Assembly (NCBI GenBank): GCA_964023275.1
Contig: OZ029921.1
Location: 17,768,204-17,832,203 of the forward strand
Origin: Norana najaformis
Taxonomy: Eukaryota; Annelida; Clitellata; Crassiclitellata; Hormogastridae
Direction: 5' to 3'
DNA length: 64,000 nt
Part shown: in pieces, positions 9,786 through 59,611 of the stretch
Layout of the letters: the number at the start of each line of letters is the position of its first letter
Position numbering within the stretch: the first letter of the stretch is position 1
Program-made: the position numbers and the translations under genes
Notes under the pieces: model-generated
Databases searched by the model: none
Told to the model about the DNA's origin: nothing
The model's input: the letters and a program-made list of their open reading frames with translations, nothing else

Positions 9786-10913
9786 CCTACCTATGGGCTA
9801 CCTTTTGGGCTACCTTTTGGGGCCAGAGTATATCAGACTGTTCTTTTCTTCTTCTAACATGAAATACGAGAGCAACCAAAATGTTTTCTAGGCAACATTT
9901 TAGCAAAGGAGAAGCCTAACTAACATATATATTGTCATACACAACACATTCACCATTCACTACCAACAGGTAGTTACTGCATATTGAACTGAATGATTGA
10001 TCGCCAGGTGGTCAGGCGGGCAAAAAAGACTGACAGGAGTTGATCATCTGCGAAGAGCTGCATTTGTCTAGCAAACTGTTTGCAGCTACTAGTGACTGAT
10101 AATACTCATCACCTTCAACATGAAGGCAGTGCACTGCTACCAACCAGTTTTAGCACACTGCTGTTAGCAAACATCGGTTTTTCAACTCTCAATGACTGAC
10201 ATCCGACTGACCTGAAGACAGAAAAGCCTCAACAGGCAGCTGGTTAATCTGTGGATTGCTTTTCTTTCGTAACTGCTTTGCACATCTGTTGCTATTTTTA
10301 ACACCTATGACATCCTCTCCTAGCATCAAATGAGCCAGATGACAGATGTCTGTTCGCTGTATCTTATCAACGAACTTGGTGCACCCTACAGTGAACCAAT
10401 ATAGAGAGCTGACAGGTAAATGGGAATTACAGAAGTTCAGAAAGAGCTCCAGGGAAGTGAGGGAACTCAGGACTCAGGTCTGTGCGTGGTTGCTTTCAAC
10501 CCCGAATAGATTGGCCTCAAACTTTGCTTGCAAGTGAATGGAACCGAATCTGACCTTACTTGCCTATCGATTGTGTTTTGACTGAGCACCTGTGAATAAA
10601 CTGGTTCTCATGACTTAGCTTTCACAGGGCACTGTAGAAATCTCAAATTTACAATTATAATTTATGCACATGGGTGCCTTTGAGGAGTGCTCCTCTCCTT
10701 ACATACTTACTTATAACGAACCACTGCAGCCTGTTACATGTAATCTTATCCTACTAATTCAAAAGACCCTTTTAGTGCAGCCTGATGGAAGATGAAAATG
10801 AAATGCTGCAAATAATGCCTGCGCTGTTGCCATGGAAGCTGGAGACTGAAACAAACGACACCTGTATGGGTGATGTGGAAAACAGAGCCGTCAATATAGG
10901 CTGGTAAGATACA
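9786..10913. other. No gene recognised; possible LINE 3' end near 10630
   Basis: There is no supported exon. At about 10627-10645 the plus strand reads GGGCACTGTAGAAATCTC, a diverged version of the LINE 3' core found elsewhere in the window, so 10240-10665 may be a decayed LINE 3' UTR. The 63-codon frame at 10346-10537 has no recognisable domain. Confidence 0.35.
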
Positions 10914-14222: not shown

Positions 14223-15229
14223 TCACAATCATCTTACCCAAGGAATTTTATCCTTTCACTTAAAAAAAATAATAATGCATTGGAGGCAACAGGTCAAACT
14301 CCAGTAGGTCAGAGACACCAGAAGTTAGGCTATGGTTAGGCTATAAGCAGAAAAGAAGTCAGAAAGCATTACTTATCATATAAGCATAAATGCTTTTAAA
14401 AGCAAATAATAATTATGTGATAGTAGTGTGACAGAAAACCAGTTCAGTAATAGGTTTTCATAAAAAAACACAAACGTCAGGCAAAGCGAACTCCTGCAAG
14501 CAACTCAGATCTTGAATGTTTTGCTCTTTCAATCCAATTGTTTATACTGTCTGTCAAACACTGGCTTACTTATAGCGGAGAATTTAAAAAGAAGACTATT
14601 GGCATCTCTGTCAACAACTAAACGTCTGTCTTATGCAAATACTCCTAAATATCAATACTCTGCAGAACACACAGACATACAAACAAACACATGAACAAAC
14701 CCACATGTAGACACTAAGCACAAACTACCACATGTGGAGACAGACAGACATTTACAAAAGCTCAGATGCATACATACATACATACATCCATACATATACA
14801 CATACATAAGCCAAACAATGAAAGTACTAACTTCTAAATGCAAACATTGTCTATTCATATTTACCCAAACTCCAAATCACCCTTGTCTCAGTGATTGTCT
14901 TGGGTGCTGCTTCTGCTGTTGCTGGTGATGCAACTGTTGATGTTTATGACTCTGCTGCCATCTAGTGCCTCAAGAACCGCTTTTCTGTAGCAGGCTCTAT
15001 ATAAATCTGAACAACACAACAGCCTTGTCAGTGCAAATGAGAGAAGAAGTGAGGCTCAGCTGCTTCAGACATCATGACTTCTAGAGCATCTAATGGGTGC
15101 AATTCAAACTCAGATACTTGATAAGAATTTAAGGAGTGGTAAACTGGATGCATATACTGACAATTGCACCAAATGTGGCGTCAGTCAGTGAATAACTGTA
15201 CACAGCCATAGAAGTACTCCTGTACAGCA
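14223..15229. other. No gene recognised; CATA microsatellite and a LINE-like tail
   Basis: Contains a CATA run at about 14767-14806 and, at about 14996-15020, CTCTATATAAATCTGAACAAC, which resembles the terminal sequence of L2-type LINEs. No exon was supported. Confidence 0.4.
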
Positions 15230-15720
15230 CTTTTTTTCAGTCTCGGCCGTGCCATGGCGCTACATAAATTGTCTTATCATCATCATTTTTATTGCCTTCA
15301 TCAAATATCGCAAACTATTTACCATCCAATCGGACCACTCTACTCGCTTATCCTCCTACCTCACTCTTGACCGTCCATCCGTAACTAACCGATTCATAAA
15401 CTACACTGTACCTCGACTCTGGAATGATCTCCCTCCTGAATTTTTGCAAATTCTCTGCTTCTTTATCCCTTCCATCATTCACTCTATCTATTACTCCTCA
15501 GGTATTCCATTCAAAACTGAAGTCTCACCTCTTGAAGAAATCCCACCCTGATCAGTCTTCCCATTTCTCTCAGCTTAAACACAATCCATCTTGGCCTCCT
15601 CTCCTTCCTCTCTCTGGTCTCCTAGAAACCAGACTTGGTTCTCTACATGGCATCGTTGGACAACCCCACAGACTTGACACAGTGCTTGTGAATAAGCTGG
15701 CGCCCTGCGGTTAGATTTTA
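15230..15720 (+). mobile_element. L2/CR1-type LINE C-terminal fragment (plus strand)
   Basis: A LINE-tail-like stretch (GCCATGGCGCTACATAAATT at 15249-15268, then TCATCATCATT) precedes a frame at about 15310-15440 encoding DHSTRLSSYLTLDRPSV and VPRLWNDLPPEF. A frame-shifted segment near 15500 gives VFHSKLKSHLLKKSH. These match the conserved end of LINE reverse transcriptases (PxLWNxLPxxF...FKxxLKTHLF). At least one frameshift separates the parts, so it is a fossil. Two elements, a tail and a new C-terminus, may abut here. Confidence 0.7.
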
Positions 15721-17500: not shown

Positions 17501-18632
17501 CATGGTATTTCTTATGCTCCACTTTGCCCTATTCTTGGCCGTATTACAGCACTCTATAAATCGTCATCGTATTATTATTATTTTTTTAAACCTGCACTTC
17601 TCAGATAAATTCATAAATTATTATTATTATTACCAACAGTGCATTACACAGTCTATGGCATGGTATCTCACATTGCTGATTGGTTCAAAGCTAACCGTCT
17701 ATCTCTTAATTTATCGAAAACCAACTATATTATTTTCTGTTCAAACCGTAAACCCCTTCCTCAACTTAATATGGGTCTTTGTATTGATAATAAATTAATT
17801 CAACAAACTACTTCTACCAAATTCCTTGGTGTGTACATAGATGACCATTTAACCTGGAAAGAACATATCAAACATGCATCTTCTAAACTTGCTAAAAACA
17901 TAGGTGTATTGTCACGTATTAGCTACATTTTACCCCAACAAATAAGACTTGCCCTTTATTATACGATAATCTACGCATATTTATCTTATTCCAATATTAT
18001 TTGGAAACGAGCTGTCCGAGTCACTGCAGAAATATCATCCTTTTCTCATACTGAGCAATATTTTAATGATTTGAATATTCTTAAAAATAGTCAAATTAAT
18101 AGATTTCAAATAAGTGAATTTACGTACCAGTATGAACATCACTTCTTCCTTCAACGACTGCTTTGTAATTTAGTCTGAGCCCCACACTTATCTCACTAGA
18201 TCTGAGGATAAATATTACTGTGAGTTTGCTCGAACTAACACTAGGATGTTTTCTATTAAATACATAGGCCCTTCTTCCTGGAATAGACTGCCTCTGGATA
18301 TTCGTAGTTTACCCAATTTATGGTTATTTAAGAACGCATGCGCGTTTATGTGAATACAATATGTACTAATTAAAGTTAGTTAAGTTAGTTAATCTGTTTG
18401 TCATCATTTTTCTTTGTTCTAATGTTCTGATTCCTGTAACTGGTATTTCTCAGATTACTCATTCACCATAATATGTTGTATCGTATCACAGATGTCTTCA
18501 TTTAGCGGGATTTTATCCCTTCGAAGCTGCCTTTTGCTTCCTGTATCTAAGAATGTATGTAGTCTTAAGTTTGTTTGTTGTTACTGGTAGCAATAAAAAA
18601 CTGACTGATTGATTGATTGATTGATTGATTAT
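17501..18632 (+). mobile_element. LINE (CR1/L2/Jockey-like) reverse-transcriptase 3' portion with (GATT)n tail
   Basis: An open frame at 17639-18178 encodes the region downstream of the reverse-transcriptase catalytic centre: WFKANRLSLNLSKTNYIIF, then TKFLGVYIDDHLTWKEHI and IRLALYYTIIYAYLSYSNIIW. The usual spacer before KRAVR is missing: SNIIW joins KRAVRV directly, an apparent in-frame deletion of roughly 15-20 codons. After a frameshift near 18178 the ending continues as KYIGPSSWNRLPLDIRSLPN to about 18350. A short 3' UTR follows, ending in AATAAAAAACTGACT and five GATT units (to 18632). The catalytic YADD and endonuclease regions are absent (5' truncation), so it cannot move by itself. An AT-rich, tail-like stretch (GCACTCTATAAATCGTCATC) at 17550-17569 precedes it. 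Confidence 0.85.
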
Positions 18633-33500: not shown

Positions 33501-36500
33501 ACAATATGTCATACAAAAGGAGACTAGGACAAAGGAACATCTTAGGAATGAAAGAAGGTGTATCAAGTGCGGACGCTACTCAAGGTAATAATAATAATAA
33601 AGAGAATTTCTATAGCACCGTAACATGGCCGAGGCCGAAGAAAAGGGCGCTATAAATAAATAAGTTTAAGCGACAATAGAAAATTAACTACAGTCATACG
33701 ATAATTTAAATAGAAACGCTTTAAGCCCTTTCTTAAACGTATCCAAGGATGGAGCGTTCTTCACATGGTCGGGAAGGCTATTCCACGCAGTGGGCCCGGC
33801 AATCGAGAAAGAACTTTCGCCAAACTGCGTGGAAGACCTCGGGACCTGCAGTAGGTTCCTCAACGAGGACCGCAGCCGACATCTGTTCCCAGGACCGCAG
33901 CCGACATTTGTTCTCAAGTTATCTGAGGTCTTTGAGCATGCTAGCCGCTCTATCAGACCTTGAGTCAGTGGAATTGCAATTATGTGCTCACATCATAAAG
34001 ATCAGGAAATAAGAGAACCTTAAACATTTTCAGTTTTAACAGCTGGATACTGTGTTGTGTTAGCCTGCTACTATGGCTATTAAAAAAATTCCACTTTATG
34101 AAATTCCAGATATGCACATATATGTGTATTTATATATATTTGCATACAGTTGCATCACATGCTGCATATTACTGCAAGATTGTGTTAATGGCTATACAGC
34201 CTAAATATATGAAATGTTTTTACCTAGATCTGAAGCCCCTGAACTGATTGACTTGAAAACTGATAGGGTGAATGAACTGCCAAGATCTCTGCCGATAATT
34301 TGAAAGTGATTGGATTACAGCAGTGTTCCCACAACACCCAACTATGCAAACTATGTACTTTTTTATACAGTATGATACTTGTCAGGCTTGCCTACAGCTC
34401 ATTGATTTGTGCACTATGGCTCATTCAATGCTGCTTGATGCAGGGATGTGCTTTTCTGAAAAAGCAATAAAACTGTCTTCCGAGTAAAAGCATGAAATTG
34501 TATTAATCTTTGTAAACAGTTTTGGACCGGTTTTCAAACCTCTTAAGCTGGACAAAATGATGGGCCAATTAAAAGAAAATACAAAATTTAATAAAACTTA
34601 CATTTGAATAAAACTTAAATTTGTTTAAAAAATTTGACCTATAATGCTACATCTTAAGATAATATTATGCATATTAAGCATATGATTATGCCAGTTGGCT
34701 TTAATTTTGCAGCAGTCATTTACAACAATACAAATGTCACAAGTAAACAGCAAATATTAAACACCACTACTCTTTAAAATTTACTGCAGGGGCACATGAT
34801 CAGCAAAAAGGTTTTAAAAAGTATCAACATTTAACATTTGCAGTTTTACAGGTGTCAGTTTCATTGTGTTGCCATTAACACCCATTCTGAAACTTTGCAG
34901 TTATTTTACAACAGTTTACAAAAATCACCTGATAACTTTGGAAAAGCTTAGTGAAGCAGCCTCAAATTACACTGATGAAAATTAACAAACACTCACAGAA
35001 ACTGGTTCAGCTGAATGCCGAGGATCGTAAATCCGTATTTTTCCATCCTTGCAGGATGTCGCACATCTCTGTCCATCTTGACTCCAAGAAAAACTGAAAA
35101 TCTGTTGTTCAAATGAAAAACCACATTGCAGCCAATATTTCAAACATAATAATAGGCTGTAAAGTGCCCAACTCTTCTCAAATGGATAGCATCAGTTGGC
35201 AGTATAAGAAGAGATCTAACAGAGAATGGGTGGCAGAGGAATATATACTATGGTGACCACGACGATGACACTGACAACAATGAAGATTCACAGCATTTGT
35301 AAACAGTGATTAATTATCTTGCTCACACATGGCATACTGCTCCCATGCTTCTAAATGCCCTGACATCCATACTCAATCCCTTTGCATTTGATCCATCTTA
35401 AAATCAGAAGTACAGGGACTTAAAAGCACATGACTACACAGAAGCCCTTGCTTACCGTATCCGTGTGACCAGTCAGCTTAATTTTCTCTTGCTCTGACTG
35501 CAAATCCCACAGTCGAACGGTCATGTCGTACGATCCAGATGAAAGAACATCAGAAGCCAGAGGATGGAACCTCACAAAATACAACTTCTCTGAGTGACCT
35601 GCAATCGACAATCATCACTTTCACATTCTCAGTCATTCAGCAAAACTTCACCTTTACACAAATAAAAAGTAGGACCTATACAGACCTTTAAATGATGATG
35701 TCAGTGCGTGGAACCACTGCTGTCATCTGGTGTTCACGGATGGCTCATGTGAGAACCTACAGACTGGACATGTTACAGTACAACAAGGCACCATAAGAAT
35801 CAACTGGCTACATTTAGAATTACTAGTCACAAAGCTCGACATGTAATTTTCCACATGGACTATTACACTGGCCAACAGAAAAAAAAATTTTTCTAGTTGC
35901 CTTCGGTTTTAGACCTGTTCTTGGGGTAATTTTGGGCGCTGATTCAGAAAATGTCATTGGATTGAGTGCATCAGGTCTAGTTTCTGAGATATCGTCGATT
36001 TTGTAAAGAAAACCCAGTCCACTCTTTAAACGATGTCTTTGGCAAAACTAAAATGTCATAATAAGCTTTATTTATGGCTAATTATAATTCTTGCTGATTC
36101 ATATAATGCCTACATCCTTATAATGTAAAATCAGCATATCTTGCCGCGTGCTGAGATATTGCTGATTCAACGAAATAACTATTCCGTAGCCTACAGCTTA
36201 CTCAGCACTAAATTCATGGCCTCATTTAGAATTTATTTGTGCTTATACAGCGTTTCATGGTTTCGAACTATGTAAATAGATTATGCTGAAGTCAGCATTT
36301 ATAGCCTATATAAACCGCCTCCTTGAAAGCTAGAGCAGCCGCAGTCGTCTTAGGGCATATTAAGAGTTGGTCGCAAGAACAATCTGTGAATGTGAGCATT
36401 AAATAACTACATGTTCTTACTATTTTTTAGGTTAGTCATTTAATTCCTCAGATGCGAACATCCTTAAGGTTATGGCTACTTCCAGACGGAGCTGCATTAA

Positions 36501-39164
36501 CCATCCAGACATATTCTGCTACATTTGTGGGGAATACACACTAAAAGCAAACAGGAAACCGATTTCTGAGTTTGTAAAAAGAGCATATGTAGGTTATTTT
36601 GGTGTCAAACTTGGAGATCAAGATAAGCAATGGGCTCCTCATACAGTATGCAAAACTTGTATTGAACAATTGCGCCACTGGACAATTGGAAAGAGAAGCT
36701 GCCTGAAATTTGGTGTACCGATGGTTTGGAGGGAACAGATAAACCACTTCGACGACTGTTACTTTTGTATGGTTAATATCATAGGCATCAATCGAAATAA
36801 TCGTCACAAGTTGTCTTACCCTGATATACCTTCAGCCAGGAGACCTGTTCCGCATTCGGATATTGTACCAGTTCCACCTTTTCGCGAACTACCTCAGCTC
36901 TCAGACGATGAGACTTGCATGTCCAATATCGGACAAGATGATGAAAGTGAAGAAAGTGGGGGCAGTGATAGTGATTTCCAATCAACTTCACACAGTGAAC
37001 GTTTTGACCAAAAAGAGTTGAGTGATCTGATCAGGGACTTACATCTTTCCAAAGAGTCCTCTGAATTGCTTGTGTCCAGACTAAAGGAAAAGAATGCACT
37101 TCAGCCTGGAACGAAAATTACAATTTATAGAAACAGAGAAAAGGATTTGCTGCCATTCTTTACCGAAGACAACAACCTAGTATTCTGTAATGACATCAGC
37201 AACTTATTGAAGAAAATTGGTCTGTCGGATTACAGCCCAGATGAGTGGCGTCTTTTTATCGACAGTTCAAAACGTAGTCTGAAATGTGTGCTTTTAAATA
37301 ACGGCAACAAATTTGGTTCTATTCCAATCGGTCACTCCACCAGGATGAAAGAAGAGTACAATGCCATCTCTTTAGTACTGGAAAAGATAAAATACAAAGA
37401 ACATCAATGGGTAATTTGTGTAGACTTGAAGATGGTAAATTTCCTCCTTGGTCAACAAAGTGGCTACACAAAGTATCCCTGCTTTTTGTGTCTTTGGGAC
37501 AGTAGAGCCAAGCATGACCATTGGACAAGAAAAGATTGGCCTTCGAGGAAAGACATGGTGGTTGGAGCTCAAAATGTAATCAAGGAATCTTTGGTGGCAC
37601 GAGATAGGATCATACTGCCACCACTACATATAAAGCTAGGCCTGATGAAACAATTTGTCAGGGCTTTGAATAAAGAAGGTTCATGCTTCGAATACATAGT
37701 ACACAAGTTACCAGGAATTACAATGGAAAAATTGAAGGCTGGAATCTTCGATGGTCCACAGATCAGGCAACTTATGAATGACCCACTTTTCATACCATCA
37801 ATGAATGAAATCGAATCTTGTGCCTGGTCTTCCTTTGTTCTTGTAACTAAAAATTTTCTTGGCAACAAGAAGGCAGACAATTATGCACAACTAGTAGAGG
37901 ATATGCTTCTTCATTTCAACAAGCTTGGCTGCAACATGAGCATTAAAGTCCATTATCTCCACAGTCACTTAGATCGCTTTCCAGAGAATCTTGGTGACTT
38001 CAGCGAAGAGCAAGGTGAAAGATTTCACCAAGACATCAAAACAATGGAAAATCGATATCAAGGAAGATGGGATGCACACATGATGGCAGACTATTGCTGG
38101 AATATTATGCGCGATTGTTCCGGCAGATGCCACACTCGGAAATCGTACAAAAGGAGCTTCTTCGGTGTCGAATGACTTGAAATTTTTATAACAAACTTTT
38201 TCTGTTTGGTATCATATAAGTACAGTTTCAGGTACTACCATTTTCTTTTAAGTATTTGTATTATTATGTTTATTTAGTGTATCACATAATAAATTGAGCA
38301 CTACATAATTATAGCTATAGCCTTATGTTTTATGGGCGAGCAGAGGCAAGGACTGGTATATGGCATAATGTTCTATATCTCGAAAACTAGACCTGCTGGG
38401 AGAAAACTGGTGCCTTTTCTGGAATCAGCAGGTCAAATATACCCAGAAACAGTTCTAACATTTGAGGCAACAAATTATGTGTTGGCCAGTGTTATGCTAC
38501 TGCTTTGAGTGACACAGGCAGAAACTAACCACGAAGATATCCTGATGGGCTGTCAATAGTTTCAGTCAGTCCACCCTCCGGAATGTTCCAGATTCTGATT
38601 TTCGCATCATCACAGCCTATAATGCATTATCAGTTTAATTCACATTTTTTAGTTAATCACTTCAATAACAAAAGTTTAGCAATTCAAGTAAACACCAAAA
38701 ACCCAGTTAGATTCCAGCCTAAAGACCTGTTCAGCAAACTAATGATTCACATGATTTTGGGTGCAACTTAAGAGTTGTTGATAAGCTGATGGCAGGCTCA
38801 CTGGATTTAAGCATCATTGCCGGTTTGTACTTTAAGTGGAACATCCGGCTCAGAGTAGGAAACTCAATGCAGCAGAAGGGACAAATATGGCAAGGAAGAG
38901 AAAGACCGAAAATTAGTGACATAGACTGAGATATAGAATGAGGCAGAAAAAGAAAGAAAAACAGAACAATAGACATAAAGTGACAGGATAGAAAGGCAGA
39001 GACACAGAGAGAGACAAAGAGAAGACACAGAACAAGATATTACAGCTGATCTTACCGACAGCAAGACGATGATCGTTAAATGGATCCCATTCAAAATCTG
39101 TTACAGCGCTTCCATTCTGCACGGCAGGCAGTGTAGTGTCTGTTAAGCGGCCTCTTTTGTCTGT
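29494..39164 (-). CDS. CORO7: Coronin-7 C-terminal propeller and acidic tail (residues about 579-989)
   Basis: Ten exons. WD blades are visible as TDFEWDPFNDHRLAV, DDAKIRIWNIPEGG, KLYFVRFHPLASDVL with YDMTVRLWDL, FSWSQDGQRCATSCKDG with IRIYDPR, and RVVWTCNDNLLVVTGFDR. The extension follows: LIPYYDDDSSTLFLTGRGDG, FLPKTEVDVRKVEFARAFRL, SFTVPRTK, VEFFQDDLFPETRVTWKP. The tail has a charged helix (TDEQKKEE) and an acidic end with a single Trp (DPDEW), the feature described in coronin-7/POD1 as Arp2/3-type acidic tail. The intron between 38530 and 35598 holds the 2.6-kb DNA transposon. Confidence 0.93.
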
Positions 39165-52738: not shown

Positions 52739-52896
52739 GGACTATAATGATATAGAAGGCAGATAGAGAAAGACAGATCGATAGATAGATAGATAGATAG
52801 ATTGATAGATAGATAGATTGATAGATAGATAGAGAGACAAACAGACAGACAGACAGACAAACAGACAGAAAGATGGTTAGATAGATAGAGAAAGCG

Positions 52897-52927
<31 letters not shown>

Positions 52928-53027
52928 GAGAAATACAGATGGATGGATATAGTCAGAGATAAAGAAAGAGAGAAAGAACGATAGATAAATAGATAGAGAC
53001 AGCAGATAGATAGCTACTAAGGATACT

Positions 53028-53058
<31 letters not shown>

Positions 53059-53077
53059 TTAGATAGATAGATAGATT

Positions 53078-53111
<34 letters not shown>

Positions 53112-54110
53112 AAGATGGTTAGATAGATAGAGAAAGCGAGAAAGAAAGATAGATAGGTAGATATATGGATAGACAGATAGATAGATGGATATAGTCAGAG
53201 ATAGAGAAAGAGAGGAAGAAAGATAGATAAATAGATAGAGAAAGGAGAGAGATAGATAGATACTAAAATAGATAAATAGATAGACAGACAGACAGACAGA
53301 CAGAAACATGGTTAGATAGATAGAGAAAGCGAGAAAGAAAGAAACAAAGATAGATAGATAGACAGACAGATAGATGGATGGATATAGTCAGAGACAGAGA
53401 AAGAGAGAAAGAAAGATAGATAAATAGATATAGAAAGCAGATACATAGATACTAAGATAGATAGATAGACAGATAGATAGATAGATAAATGGATATATGG
53501 ATAGATGAAGAAAGAAAGGTACATACAACGGACAGACAGACAGACGGACAGACAGATGGTTAGATAGATAGAGAAGGCAAGAAATGAAGAAAGAAAGAAA
53601 GAAAAAGATAGATAAACAGATAGATAGATAGATGGATGGAAATAGTTAGAGATAGATATAGAGAGAAAGAAAAAAGATAGCTAGACAGATAGAGAAGGCA
53701 TATAGATAGATACTTAGATAGATAGATAGGTAGATCAATAGATAGGTAGGTAAATAGACAGACAGGCAGACAGACAGACAGACGGACAGATAGACAGACA
53801 GATAGACAGATAGACAGACAGATATATAGATCGATAGATGGATAGATGGACAGATGGATAGATGGATAGATAAAGAGAAAAAAGATAGACAGACAGACAG
53901 ATAGATAGATGGATGTAGTTAGATATAGTTAGATATAGAGAAAGAGAGAAAGAAATAAAGATTGATAGATAGACAGATAGATGAATAGATATATGGATGG
54001 ATGGATGGATGGATGGATGGATGGATGGACGGACGGACGGACAGAAAGACAGACAGACAGACAGATAGACAGATAGATAGATAGAGACATGCAGCAAGAA
54101 AGAAAACAAG
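52690..54110. repeat. GATA/GACA tetranucleotide block, first part
   Basis: Begins with a (GA)n run (52690-52733), then interrupted GATA, GACA, GATG and GAAA units. A longer semi-repeat (GACA cluster, GATGGTTAGATAGATAGAGAAAG, GATA, TAGTCAGAGATA) recurs about four times between 52855 and 53660. A GGAT/GGAC run lies at 53990-54045. The period-4 composition leaves minus-strand frames open as Ser/Leu/Ile/Tyr repeats, which are not genes. Confidence 0.95.
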
Positions 54111-55986: not shown

Positions 55987-56025
<39 letters not shown>

Positions 56026-56088
56026 TAGATAGAGAGAGAGAGACAGAGCAAAAGAGATAAAGATATAGATAGATAAATAGAGAGAGAT

Positions 56089-56120
<32 letters not shown>

Positions 56121-56626
56121 TCGCGCGAGATAGATAGAGAGATAGATAGATAGATAGATCGAGAGATCGATCGATAGATAGATAGATAGGTAGATAGATA
56201 GATAGATCGAGGGATCGAGAGATAGGTAGATAGGGATAGAGATAGAGAGAGAGAGAGTGAAAGAGAGAGAGAGATTAGGAGAAAGAGATAGATAGGGATG
56301 AAAGAGTTAGTGAGAGATAGTGATAGCGAGAAATAGAGAGAAAGGGGATAGATAGATGATAGATAGATAGATAGATGGATAGATAGATAGATAGACAGAC
56401 AGACAGAACAAAAGAGATAAAGACATAGATTGATAAATAGAGAGAGAGAGATGGGAGAGAGAGAAAGATAGATAGCGCGAGATAGATAGAGAGATAGATA
56501 GATAGAGAAAGACAGATAGAGAGATATATAGATAGAGAAAGACAGAGAGAGGAAGGTCGAGAGATAGATAGATAGATAGATCAAGAGAAAGATAGATAGA
56601 TAGATAGATAGATCGAGAGATAGATC

Positions 56627-56661
<35 letters not shown>

Positions 56662-57353
56662 CGAGAGATCGAGGGATCGAGAGATAGGTAGATAGAGATA
56701 GAGATAGAAAGAGAGTGAGAGAGATTAGGAGAAAGAGATAGATAGGAAAGAAAGAGTTAGTGAGAGATAGAGATAGCGAGAAATAGAGAGAGAGAGGGGG
56801 ATAGATAGATGATAGATAAATAGATAGATAGATAGATAGGTAGGTAGGTAGATAGATAGACAGATAGACATACAGACAGACAGACGATCGATCGATCGAT
56901 AGATAGATAGATAGATGATAGACAGATAGATAGATAGATAGATAGATATATAGATAAAGAGAGAGAGAAACAGAACAAAAGAGATAAAGACGTTGATAGA
57001 TAAATAGAGAGAGAGAGAGAGAGGGAGGGAGAGAGAGAAAGATAGATAGCGCGAGATAGATAGAGAGATCGATATATAGAGAGAAAGACAGAGACAGGAA
57101 GGTCGAGAGATAGATAGATAGATCGAGAGATAGATACATAGATAGATAGATCGAGAGATCGATCGATATAGAGATAGATAGATAGATAGATGGTTAGATA
57201 GATAGATAGAGATAGAGATAGAGAAAGTGAGAGAGAGAGATTAGGAGAAAGAGATAGATAGGGAAGAAATGTGTTAGTGAGAGATAGAGATAGCGAGAAA
57301 TAGAAAGAGGGGGATAGATAGATAGATGATAGATGATAGATGATAGATGATAG
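55978..57353. repeat. Mixed GATA/GACA/GA/GATC block
   Basis: Interrupted GATA with GACA, GAGA and GATCGATC units. A long semi-repeat of about 450-500 bp (starting near 55990, 56395 and 56968, each with AGAGATAAAGA and GATAAATAGAGAGAGA) recurs three times, showing higher-order duplication of the block. Confidence 0.9.
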
Positions 57354-57716
<363 letters not shown>

Positions 57717-58190
57717 TGAGATAGATAGTGAGATAGATAGTGAGATAGATAGTGAGATAGATAGTGAGATAGATAGTGAGATAGATAGTGAGATAGATAG
57801 TGAGATAGATAGTGAGATAGATAGTGAGATAGATAGTGAGATAGATAGTGAGATAGATAGTGAGATAGATAGTGAGATAGATAGTGAGATAGATAGTGAG
57901 ATAGATAGTGAGATAGATAGATAGTGAGATAGATAGATAGTGAGATAGTGAGATAGATAGTGAGATAGATAGTGAGATAGATAGTGAGATAGATAGTGAG
58001 ATAGATAGTGAGATAGATAGTGAGATAGATAGTGAGATAGATAGATAGTGAGATAGATAGATAGTGAGATAGTGAGATAGATAGTGAGATAGATAGTGAG
58101 ATAGATAGTGAGATAGATAGATAGTGAGATAGTGAGATAGTGAGATAGTGAGATAGTGAGATAGAGAGTAAGATAGATAGTGAGATAGTG
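57717..58190. repeat. 12-bp repeat (TGAGATAGATAG)n derived from GATA
   Basis: About 16 regular copies of TGAGATAGATAG directly continue the GATA array, followed by variants with one extra or one fewer GATA unit and a run of TGAGATAG. The minus-strand 390-codon Tyr/Leu/Ser/Ile frame across 57274-58446 is created by the 4- and 12-bp periods. Confidence 0.97.
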
Positions 58191-58892
58191 AGATAGAGAG
58201 ATAGAGAGGGAGAGGGAGATATATACAGTTAGATAGATAGATAGAGAGAGACAGACAGACAGACAGACAGAGCCTGATAGAGAAAGAGAGAGAAAGAGAG
58301 AAAGACAGAGACAGAGAGAGACAGAAAGATAGGGAGAGAGAGAGAGAATACAATTTTGACGAATACAGCATACAAAGAGTAAAAGACATAGACCAAAGAC
58401 AGAACGTAAGAAAGAAAAAAGAGAGATAAAAACACGGGTTAGACACGGATTAACGTCGAAGTCAGAGTGTCAAAAAATAAGGTCGAATACAAAACAAAAA
58501 GAACTGGGTAACGCTAGAAGTCAGAAATTAAACACAGACGCAGTCGGGCCTAGAATAAAAGAAGGCTAAAGAAAAAAGTAAGAGAAAGACCTGAAGTAAA
58601 CAGAAAGTAAAAATAAACACTTATAGACCTAAAGTAAGAGAGATATTCATACAGAAACTGTAACGCATGCGAAGACAGGAATACAGAAGACCTAGAGTAA
58701 AACAGAAAGTAAGAAAAATAAGAGAGACAGACTTAAGAGAGGGAGAGGGAGAAAGAAAACAGGCAGACAGGTAGATCTGGAGAAAGACAGACAGAGAAAG
58801 AGAGAGAGATGGAGAGATTGAAAGAGATACAGAGAGAGATATACATAGAGAGAGATTGAGAGAGATACAAAGATATATATATATATATATTT

Positions 58893-58925
<33 letters not shown>

Positions 58926-59611
58926 TTGAGAGAGAGAGAGAGAGAAGGAGAGAGAGATAGCGAGAGAGGGAGAGTTAGAGAAAGAGAGAAATATATATAG
59001 ACCGAGAGAGACAGATAGAGAGAGAGAAAGAAAGAATGACAGATAGAGAGAGACAGATAGAGAGATACAGAGAGATAGAGATAGAGAGAGAGAGAGAAAT
59101 TGAGAGAGATACAGATATATATACATAGAGACAGAGAGATAGAGAGAGAATGAGAGAGACAGACAGAGAAAGATAGAGAGAGACAGAGACAGAGACAGAG
59201 ATGTATATAGAAAGAGACATAGAGTAAAAAATATAAAGACAGGAGACTGAAGGAGATACACCTGTAGTAGACAAATAGTACGACATAAACAGAGAGAATG
59301 ATAGATAGCGTAAGAAACATAGTAAAAAGGAAAACAGCAGAGTTCTAGAATAGGCCAGAAAATGGGACAGACTGGCCTAGACTAATACAAATAGTAAGAA
59401 AGAACACGTAGAGATGGATAGACTTAGAGTAGGACATATAGTAAGACAAAATACATAGAAACAGATAAACCGAGAATAAGGCAGAGACCAATACGGAAAA
59501 CAGAGAGACTGATAGACCTAGATTAAGAAATATTGTAAGATGGAAAGCAGACACACAGACAGATAAACTTAGATTAAGACAGAAAACAGAGAGGCCGATA
59601 GAGTTAGAGCA

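What the first reader, a model, noticed from the sequence alone, without database searches (positions are those of the whole stretch)
35863..38494. Intronic DNA transposon whose protein has a RAG1/Transib/CMC-like zinc-inserted DDE layout
Seen: TTA duplication, CACTGGCCAACA ends, long inverted repeats and one intact 567-codon gene. In the protein, D318 is followed by C337-x2-C340 and, later, H494-x4-H499 shortly before E512/E513/E516, with D264 54 residues before D318. Known (from memory): RAG1 uses D600, D708, C727, C730, H937, H942 and E962, with the same D-to-Cys spacing (19) and the same His spacing (5). The N-terminus has paired CxxC motifs like a ZAD zinc domain, which I do not associate with CACTA, Chapaev or Transib transposases. 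Inferred: an active or recently active element related to the CMC/Transib/RAG1 assemblage, perhaps an unnamed superfamily.
Basis: partly seen in the sequence, partly recalled or inferred. Interest (0 to 1): 0.9.

Follow-up and report, generated by a model that had tools for sequence, protein, structure and literature searches.

The report
A young Chapaev3 cut-and-paste transposon
This is a complete, recently multiplied "jumping gene" of a known animal transposon group (Chapaev3) sitting in an intron; its enzyme shares active-site features with the antibody-gene recombinase RAG1, as already described for that group, and what stands out is how many near-identical copies this genome carries.

Summary
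35866-38491 is an intact 2,626-bp DNA transposon with CACTGGCCAACA ends and TTA duplications, antisense in an intron of a WD40 gene. Its genome holds 1,395 exact matches to a 31-mer of its ORF and 1,296 to one of its left end. Thirty-two end-to-end copies differ by 0.62% on average, star-like. A 3-bp flanking duplication is seen in 24 of 32 (TWA in 21 of 24, usually between A and T); repeat copies without the insertion show an uninterrupted site. The protein keeps D264, D318, C337/C340, LH386, H494/H499 and E513/E516 in divergent families. An AlphaFold model gives the RNase-H strand order with both Asp placed as in DDE enzymes; fold matches are weak, and RAG1/Transib are not among the 50 listed. 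CAC...GTG ends, A-TWA-T targets, C(2)C/LH/H(4)H motifs, protein size and an N-terminal cysteine-rich domain match published hallmarks of Chapaev3, a Chapaev lineage of CMC. It is a family of a known group, probably active until recently. No Chapaev3 protein was available for direct alignment, nor Repbase/Dfam to check whether this family is listed.

The parts
35863..35865 (.). left target-site duplication TTA (context A-TTA)
   Evidence: 3-bp duplication in 24 of 32 end-to-end copies
35866..35877 (+). left terminal inverted repeat CACTGGCCAACA (perfect 12 bp; weaker symmetry for about 260 bp)
35866..38491 (+). whole Chapaev3-type transposon, 2,626 bp
36472..38175 (+). transposase gene, single ORF, 567 aa
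   Evidence: 25 of 32 end-to-end copies keep a 567-aa frame
36493..36768 (+). N-terminal Cys/His-rich domain (C8, C16-x2-C19, H57, C60-x2-C63, H92, C96-x2-C99), candidate Chapa zinc domain
   Evidence: invariant in 3 intact families and in a 4-row N-terminal alignment; weak zf-AD hit in 1 of 3; Chapa domain of Chapaev3 in PMC4411706
37261..37263 (+). codon of D264, candidate first catalytic Asp, on strand beta1
   Evidence: D in 7 of 8 aligned rows; beta1 259-265
37423..37425 (+). codon of D318, candidate second catalytic Asp, after strand beta4
   Evidence: D in 11 of 11 aligned rows; beta4 314-317
37480..37491 (+). C337-x2-C340, C(2)C motif
   Evidence: C337 in 8 of 8, C340 in 7 of 8 rows
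37624..37629 (+). L385-H386, LH motif (PPLHIKLG)
   Evidence: L in 7 of 10, H in 9 of 10 rows
37951..37968 (+). H494-x4-H499, H(4)H motif
   Evidence: H494 in 9 of 11, H499 in 8 of 10 rows
38008..38019 (+). E513-Q-G-E516, candidate catalytic Glu (one of the two), on helix 512-529
   Evidence: each E in 11 of 12 aligned rows; helix in model
38480..38491 (-). right terminal inverted repeat
38492..38494 (.). right target-site duplication TTA (context TTA-T)
35599..38529 (-). host intron of a WD40-repeat gene that holds the element in antisense (about 302 bp without it; right end 38 bp from the splice donor)
   Evidence: splice sites and reading phase read; WD40 exon

Best explanation
A young family of the Chapaev3 group (Chapaev lineage of the CMC/CMCT assemblage). 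Its single-exon 567-aa DDE transposase, probably with the N-terminal zinc domain helping to bind the inverted-repeat ends and an RNase-H core split by a mainly helical insertion that carries the Cys and His pairs, excises the element and inserts it at A-TWA-T, leaving 3-bp duplications. The family expanded in one recent burst. Shown here: ends, target, duplication, empty sites, copy number, star-like divergence, conserved catalytic-type residues, RNase-H strand order in a model. Inferred: cut-and-paste chemistry, zinc binding, end recognition and present activity.
For: 3-bp flanking duplication in 24 of 32 end-to-end copies against 11.0 expected by re-pairing flanks (max 19 in 2,000); 21 of 24 are TWA (TAA 12, TTA 9; others ATA 2, AAA 1), preceded by A in 21 and followed by T in 22; 17 are exactly A-TWA-T. 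TWA beside CACTGG ends also, read by eye, around three related ORFs (L079, L080, L081) of nine loci listed. Insertion-free relatives of the L062 target are uninterrupted at the site in all six copies displayed, five with CTTA. Published Chapaev3 hallmarks match. 1,395 and 1,296 exact matches to ORF and left-end 31-mers, reversed-pattern controls 0. Pairwise divergence mean 0.62%, 200 singleton against 17 shared variants. D264, D318, 2C, LH, H494/H499, E513, E516 invariant in three intact families about 50% identical. AlphaFold model, mean pLDDT 70.6: strands 259-265, 270-276, 284-289, helix 296-305, strand 314-317, Glu helix 512-529.
Against: No annotated Chapaev3 protein was at hand, so membership rests on hallmarks, not on an alignment or tree. 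Pfam and NCBIfam give no transposase match. No PDB sequence relative. No Foldseek match at E<=0.001 in PDB or BFVD; the 50 shown of each include RNase-H-like nucleases and transposases (best: ISCth4 transposase, E 2.7e-3) but also many unrelated folds, and no RAG1/Transib. Residues 332-362 and 497-510 have pLDDT below 50 and the Glu helix only about 63-70. 8 of 32 copies lack a 3-bp duplication.
Confidence: 0.88

Rival explanations
1. A new, unnamed superfamily of the CMC/Transib assemblage that only resembles Chapaev3 in its ends and motifs.
For: No curated family model matches the transposase; no direct alignment to a Chapaev3 protein could be made; RAG1/Transib not found by profile or among listed fold matches.
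Against: The Chapaev3 hallmarks that could be tested are met, including the A-TWA-T target that PMC4079192 reports for all Chapaev3 elements it examined; an N-terminal Cys-rich domain is present as described for Chapaev3.
Confidence: 0.07
2. A CACTA/EnSpm element (another CMC lineage) with a 3-bp duplication.
For: CAC...GTG ends and 3-bp duplications also fit EnSpm (PMC12730594); C(2)C and H(3-4)H motifs are shared by CMC lineages.
Against: A fixed A-TWA-T target and an N-terminal zinc domain are the Chapaev3 description; the passages that I read do not give these for EnSpm.
Confidence: 0.04
3. A single domesticated transposase gene kept by the host in this intron.
For: The window copy has an intact ORF.
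Against: It has intact ends and a target duplication, and 1,395 sites in the genome match a 31-mer of its ORF; it differs from the majority base of 32 copies at 9 positions, within the range of 2-18 of the other copies.
Confidence: 0.01

Closest known systems
Chapaev3 group (Merrow, Garfield, Conan; Repbase Chapaev3-1_PM and others)
   Same: CAC...GTG ends; TWA duplication inserted between A and T; C(2)C, LH, H(4)H; transposase of similar size (Garfield_BM 556 aa in 2,289 bp); most others single-exon (PMC4079192); N-terminal Chapa zinc domain (PMC4411706)
   Different: Single exon, unlike Merrow and Garfield; 2,626 bp; full-length copies prevail in the sample counted here, whereas that paper also describes miniature derivatives; sequence identity to those families not measured
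Chapaev (other groups), CACTA/EnSpm, Mirage: the CMC lineages
   Same: CA..TG ends in most cases; C(2)C and H(3-4)H between second D and last E (PMC12730594)
   Different: Chapaev as a whole has 3-4 bp duplications; the fixed TWA target is reported for Chapaev3
Transib and RAG1
IS256-type transposase ISCth4
   Same: top Foldseek match, E 2.7e-3; a DDE transposase with a long helical insertion (recalled)
   Different: bacterial, 12% identity, TM-score 0.13; weak

Membership tests
Chapaev3 | 5'-CAC ... GTG-3' terminal inverted repeats | tested here: met
   CACTGGCCAACA at both ends of the window copy; same ends in most fetched copies
Chapaev3 | 3-bp TWA target duplication inserted between A and T | tested here: met
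   24 of 32 copies duplicated, 21 of 24 TWA, 17 exactly A-TWA-T; empty sites
Chapaev3 | C(2)C, LH and H(4)H motifs in a DDE transposase | tested here: met
   C337/C340, L385-H386, H494/H499; invariant in 3 intact families, mostly kept in fragments
Chapaev3 | N-terminal Chapa zinc domain | tested here: inconclusive
   conserved Cys/His-rich N-terminus present; no Chapa profile available to align; N-terminal profile has no PDB match
Chapaev3 | transposase groups with Chapaev3 proteins in a tree | not testable with these tools
   no reference Chapaev3 protein found in the collections searched (searches gave no relative)
RNase-H-fold DDE transposases | beta1-beta2-beta3-alpha-beta4 core with Asp on beta1 and after beta4, Glu on a later helix | tested here: met
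   model strands and helices around D264, D318 (blocks of pLDDT 80-95) and E513/E516 (about 63-70); predicted only, and no fold match at E<=0.001
Transib/RAG1 | detectable sequence profile or fold match to RAG1/Transib | tested here: not met
   no match in PDB sequences nor among the 50 fold matches shown of 811; Pfam RAG1 not returned
Transib | 5-bp target duplication (recalled) | tested here: not met
   5-bp flank identity in 0 of 32 copies
CACTA/EnSpm | membership by transposase tree | not testable with these tools
   no reference protein at hand

The most novel reading that the evidence does not exclude
This Chapaev3 family is active today: the transposase encoded by intact copies would excise and reinsert the element in cells, giving a working Chapaev-type relative of RAG1/Transib for biochemistry, in a genome where full-length copies of this family outnumber short derivatives.
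Probability: 0.35. Interest if true: 0.5.

Novelty: new member of a known kind. Interest (0 to 1): 0.27.

Why it matters
It is ordinary in kind. Its use is practical: a very young, very numerous Chapaev3 family with many intact transposase genes is a good candidate for testing how CMC-type DDE transposases with Cys/His insertions cut and choose A-TWA-T, and for comparing them with RAG1/Transib. The prevalence of full-length copies (69 of the first 100 ORF sites of one contig have the left end at full-length spacing) is also a useful case beside families that are taken over by miniature derivatives.

Tried and rejected
Single-sequence AlphaFold model: useless, mean pLDDT 33.8; replaced by a 40-row alignment. 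Relatives in viral contigs and GTDB genomes: none confirmed. The protein query gave nothing in viral contigs and 3 unconfirmed pattern hits in genomes; a motif pattern gave 14 viral contigs whose best tblastn E was 0.23, so not relatives; two further patterns gave 0; one bacterial contig (L077) carried a pattern and has no tblastn match at E 1e-3. Phage records: none at E<=1. The plasmid and E. coli collections were not searched. Sequence search for RAG1 likeness: none; one search found no Pfam RAG1 match in this genome, but its controls were silent too, so it says nothing. A ZAD origin of the N-terminus: only a sub-threshold hit in 1 of 3 families; not claimed. tRNAs and Rfam families in the window: 0 and 0; tandem repeats: 59 rows, none inside the element. 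A first N-terminal alignment held a wrong slice of L090 and was replaced.
Full report
What is there. The window holds a complete DNA transposon at 35866-38491. The ends are CACTGGCCAACA and its exact inverse, the flanks are A-TTA and TTA-T. Past the first 12 bp the two ends still align with gaps over about 260 bp (score 60.5; 300 single-base shuffles of one end reach at most 39). One ORF of 567 codons fills the middle.

Setting. On the minus strand the flanks read as two exons of a WD40-repeat gene...GYLR/GHSEKLYFVRF..., with donor gttagt from 38529 and acceptor gcag to 35599 (read; the lower exon matches PF00400, E 3.4e-7). The element therefore lies antisense in an intron that would be about 302 bp without it. 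The gene looks like a coronin (recalled, not shown; the 60 best PDB matches listed are general WD40 proteins).

Copies in the genome. The genome (608 Mb, 17 contigs, species unnamed) was searched with the protein: 77 copies were scored out of 6,418 first-look candidates, all 77 at 99-100% identity, 75 without a stop. Exact 31-mers gave 1,395 sites for the ORF and 1,296 for the left end, with no match to the reversed patterns. On contig C1, of the first 100 ORF sites 69 have a left end at 1,990-2,030 bp upstream, the full-length spacing, 7 at another spacing within 8 kb and 24 none; of 89 left ends, 11 have no ORF site within 8 kb downstream. These are exact-match counts, so mutated copies are missed on either side and old miniature copies would not be seen.

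Target and duplication. Forty copies were fetched, 20 of the 77 in the protein list and 20 of the 40 in the left-end list. With the window copy, 32 of 41 are end-to-end; the other nine are cut short or rearranged. A 3-bp flank is repeated in 24 of 32 (2 bp in 2, 4 bp in 1, 5 bp in 0 by the same test); re-pairing left and right flanks gives 11.0 on average and never more than 19 in 2,000. Of the 24, TAA 12, TTA 9, ATA 2, AAA 1; A precedes in 21 and T follows in 22; 17 are exactly A-TWA-T. Eight copies lack the duplication (L023, L025, L041, L043, L056, L057, L058, L061). Insertion L062 sits in a repeat; six unoccupied copies displayed (74-80% identical) show CTTA (five) or CTTC (one) where the joined flanks of L062 read ATTA, none with extra bases there. 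Two further sites (L060, L032) align at about 71% and are less clear; weaker spans for L042 and L056 were not looked at base by base.

Age and selection. The 32 copies differ pairwise by 0.11-1.11%, mean 0.62%; 200 variants are singletons and 17 shared. Adding the per-copy counts listed there (281 substitutions in 32 copies, range 2-18) gives 8.8 per copy from the majority base, about 0.33%. Both samples were drawn from best-scoring hits, so this is biased towards young copies. All 15 end-to-end copies from the protein list and 9 of 16 from the left-end list keep the 567-aa frame. Distinct ORF variants are 79 nonsynonymous (4 of them stops) and 37 synonymous, ratio per site about 0.53. This fits one recent burst from functional copies; no absolute date is claimed.

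Relatives in the same genome. A codon pattern for EQGERFHQD with a His codon that the window copy does not use found 14 sites, control 0. They comprise five near copies of the window family (97-99% over most of the protein, L075 in part 88%), families about 62, 49.5 and 49% identical, and broken relatives matching in pieces; with later fetches the pieces range from about 24 to 55%. The 49.5% family has 79 scored copies at 99-100% to its query and the 49% family 80 scored copies at 94-100%. A second pattern, around the H(4)H motif, has 1,395 sites with control 0 (the same total as the 31-mer by coincidence; the strand counts differ), and a variant 53 with control 0. Read by eye from the CACTGG/CCAGTG lists, the elements around L079, L080 and L081 have matching ends with TTA, TTA and TAA flanks, L082 perhaps TTA; no clear pair was picked out in the other five loci.

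Protein. In the three intact families D264, D318, C337, C340, L385, H386, H494, H497, H499, E513, E516 are invariant, as are C8, C16, C19, H57, C60, C63, H92, C96, C99. In the 40-row alignment, made largely of fragments, D318 is kept in 11 of 11 rows, D264 7 of 8, C337 8 of 8, C340 7 of 8, H386 9 of 10, H494 9 of 11, H499 8 of 10, E513 and E516 11 of 12 each. E512 is not conserved. The AlphaFold model from that alignment has mean pLDDT 70.6 and pTM 0.57; it shows strands 259-265, 270-276 and 284-289, helix 296-305, strand 314-317, mostly helices across the insertion, and helix 512-529 with the Glu residues. That is the RNase-H order. The stretches holding C337/C340 and H494/H499 have pLDDT below about 50, so zinc geometry is not shown. 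Foldseek gives no match at E<=0.001. Best is ISCth4 transposase at 2.7e-3; IS621 recombinase, terminase nucleases, Ty3 reverse transcriptase/RNase H, Argonaute, YqgF and viral resolvases recur in the two lists, beside hexokinases, ribosome particles and other unrelated folds; RAG1 and Transib are absent from the 50 shown.

Identification. PMC4079192 (passages and section 14 read) gives as Chapaev hallmarks CAC...GTG ends, 3-4 bp duplications and the C(2)C, LH, H(4)H motifs, and reports that all Chapaev3 elements examined had TWA duplications between A and T. PMC4411706 (passages and section 6 read) states that the Chapa zinc domain occurs in Chapaev3. PMC12730594 (passages and figure legends read) places Chapaev3 as a sublineage of Chapaev and lists 2C and 3H as conserved with the DDE residues in the CMCT clade, which includes Transib. 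PMC3630058 (one passage seen) only lists Chapaev3 among fly elements. The element meets the hallmarks that could be tested; the Chapa domain and the tree position could not be. I recall that proteins beginning much like this one are common in animal genomes; that recollection is from no call.

Verdict. A young and very numerous family of Chapaev3. It works like other DDE cut-and-paste elements (inferred). Whether this particular family is in Repbase or Dfam could not be checked.

Noticed in passing
own genome: Several Chapaev3-like families of different ages share this genome; for two of them (77 and 79 scored copies) copies are 99-100% identical to the query, for a third (80 scored copies) 94-100%.
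   Followed up: partly
own genome contig C1, 4020272-4029359: Four left ends of the window family spaced about 2.3-2.4 kb apart on one strand, with one ORF site after the last: a tandem or nested array.
   Followed up: no
L048, L049, L055: Copies with internal deletions, inverted pieces or large insertions.
   Followed up: no
window 52767-54085 and 55987-59201: Kilobases of AGAT/GA simple repeats giving long artificial open frames.
   Followed up: no
window 17609-18175 (+), 33687-33992 (-), 15192-15548 (+): Frames that look like remnants of non-LTR reverse transcriptases (by eye; the first two were given to Pfam with no match at E 0.001).
   Followed up: partly
window 10561-10644: A dispersed repeat, a relative of which received the L062 insertion.
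   Followed up: partly
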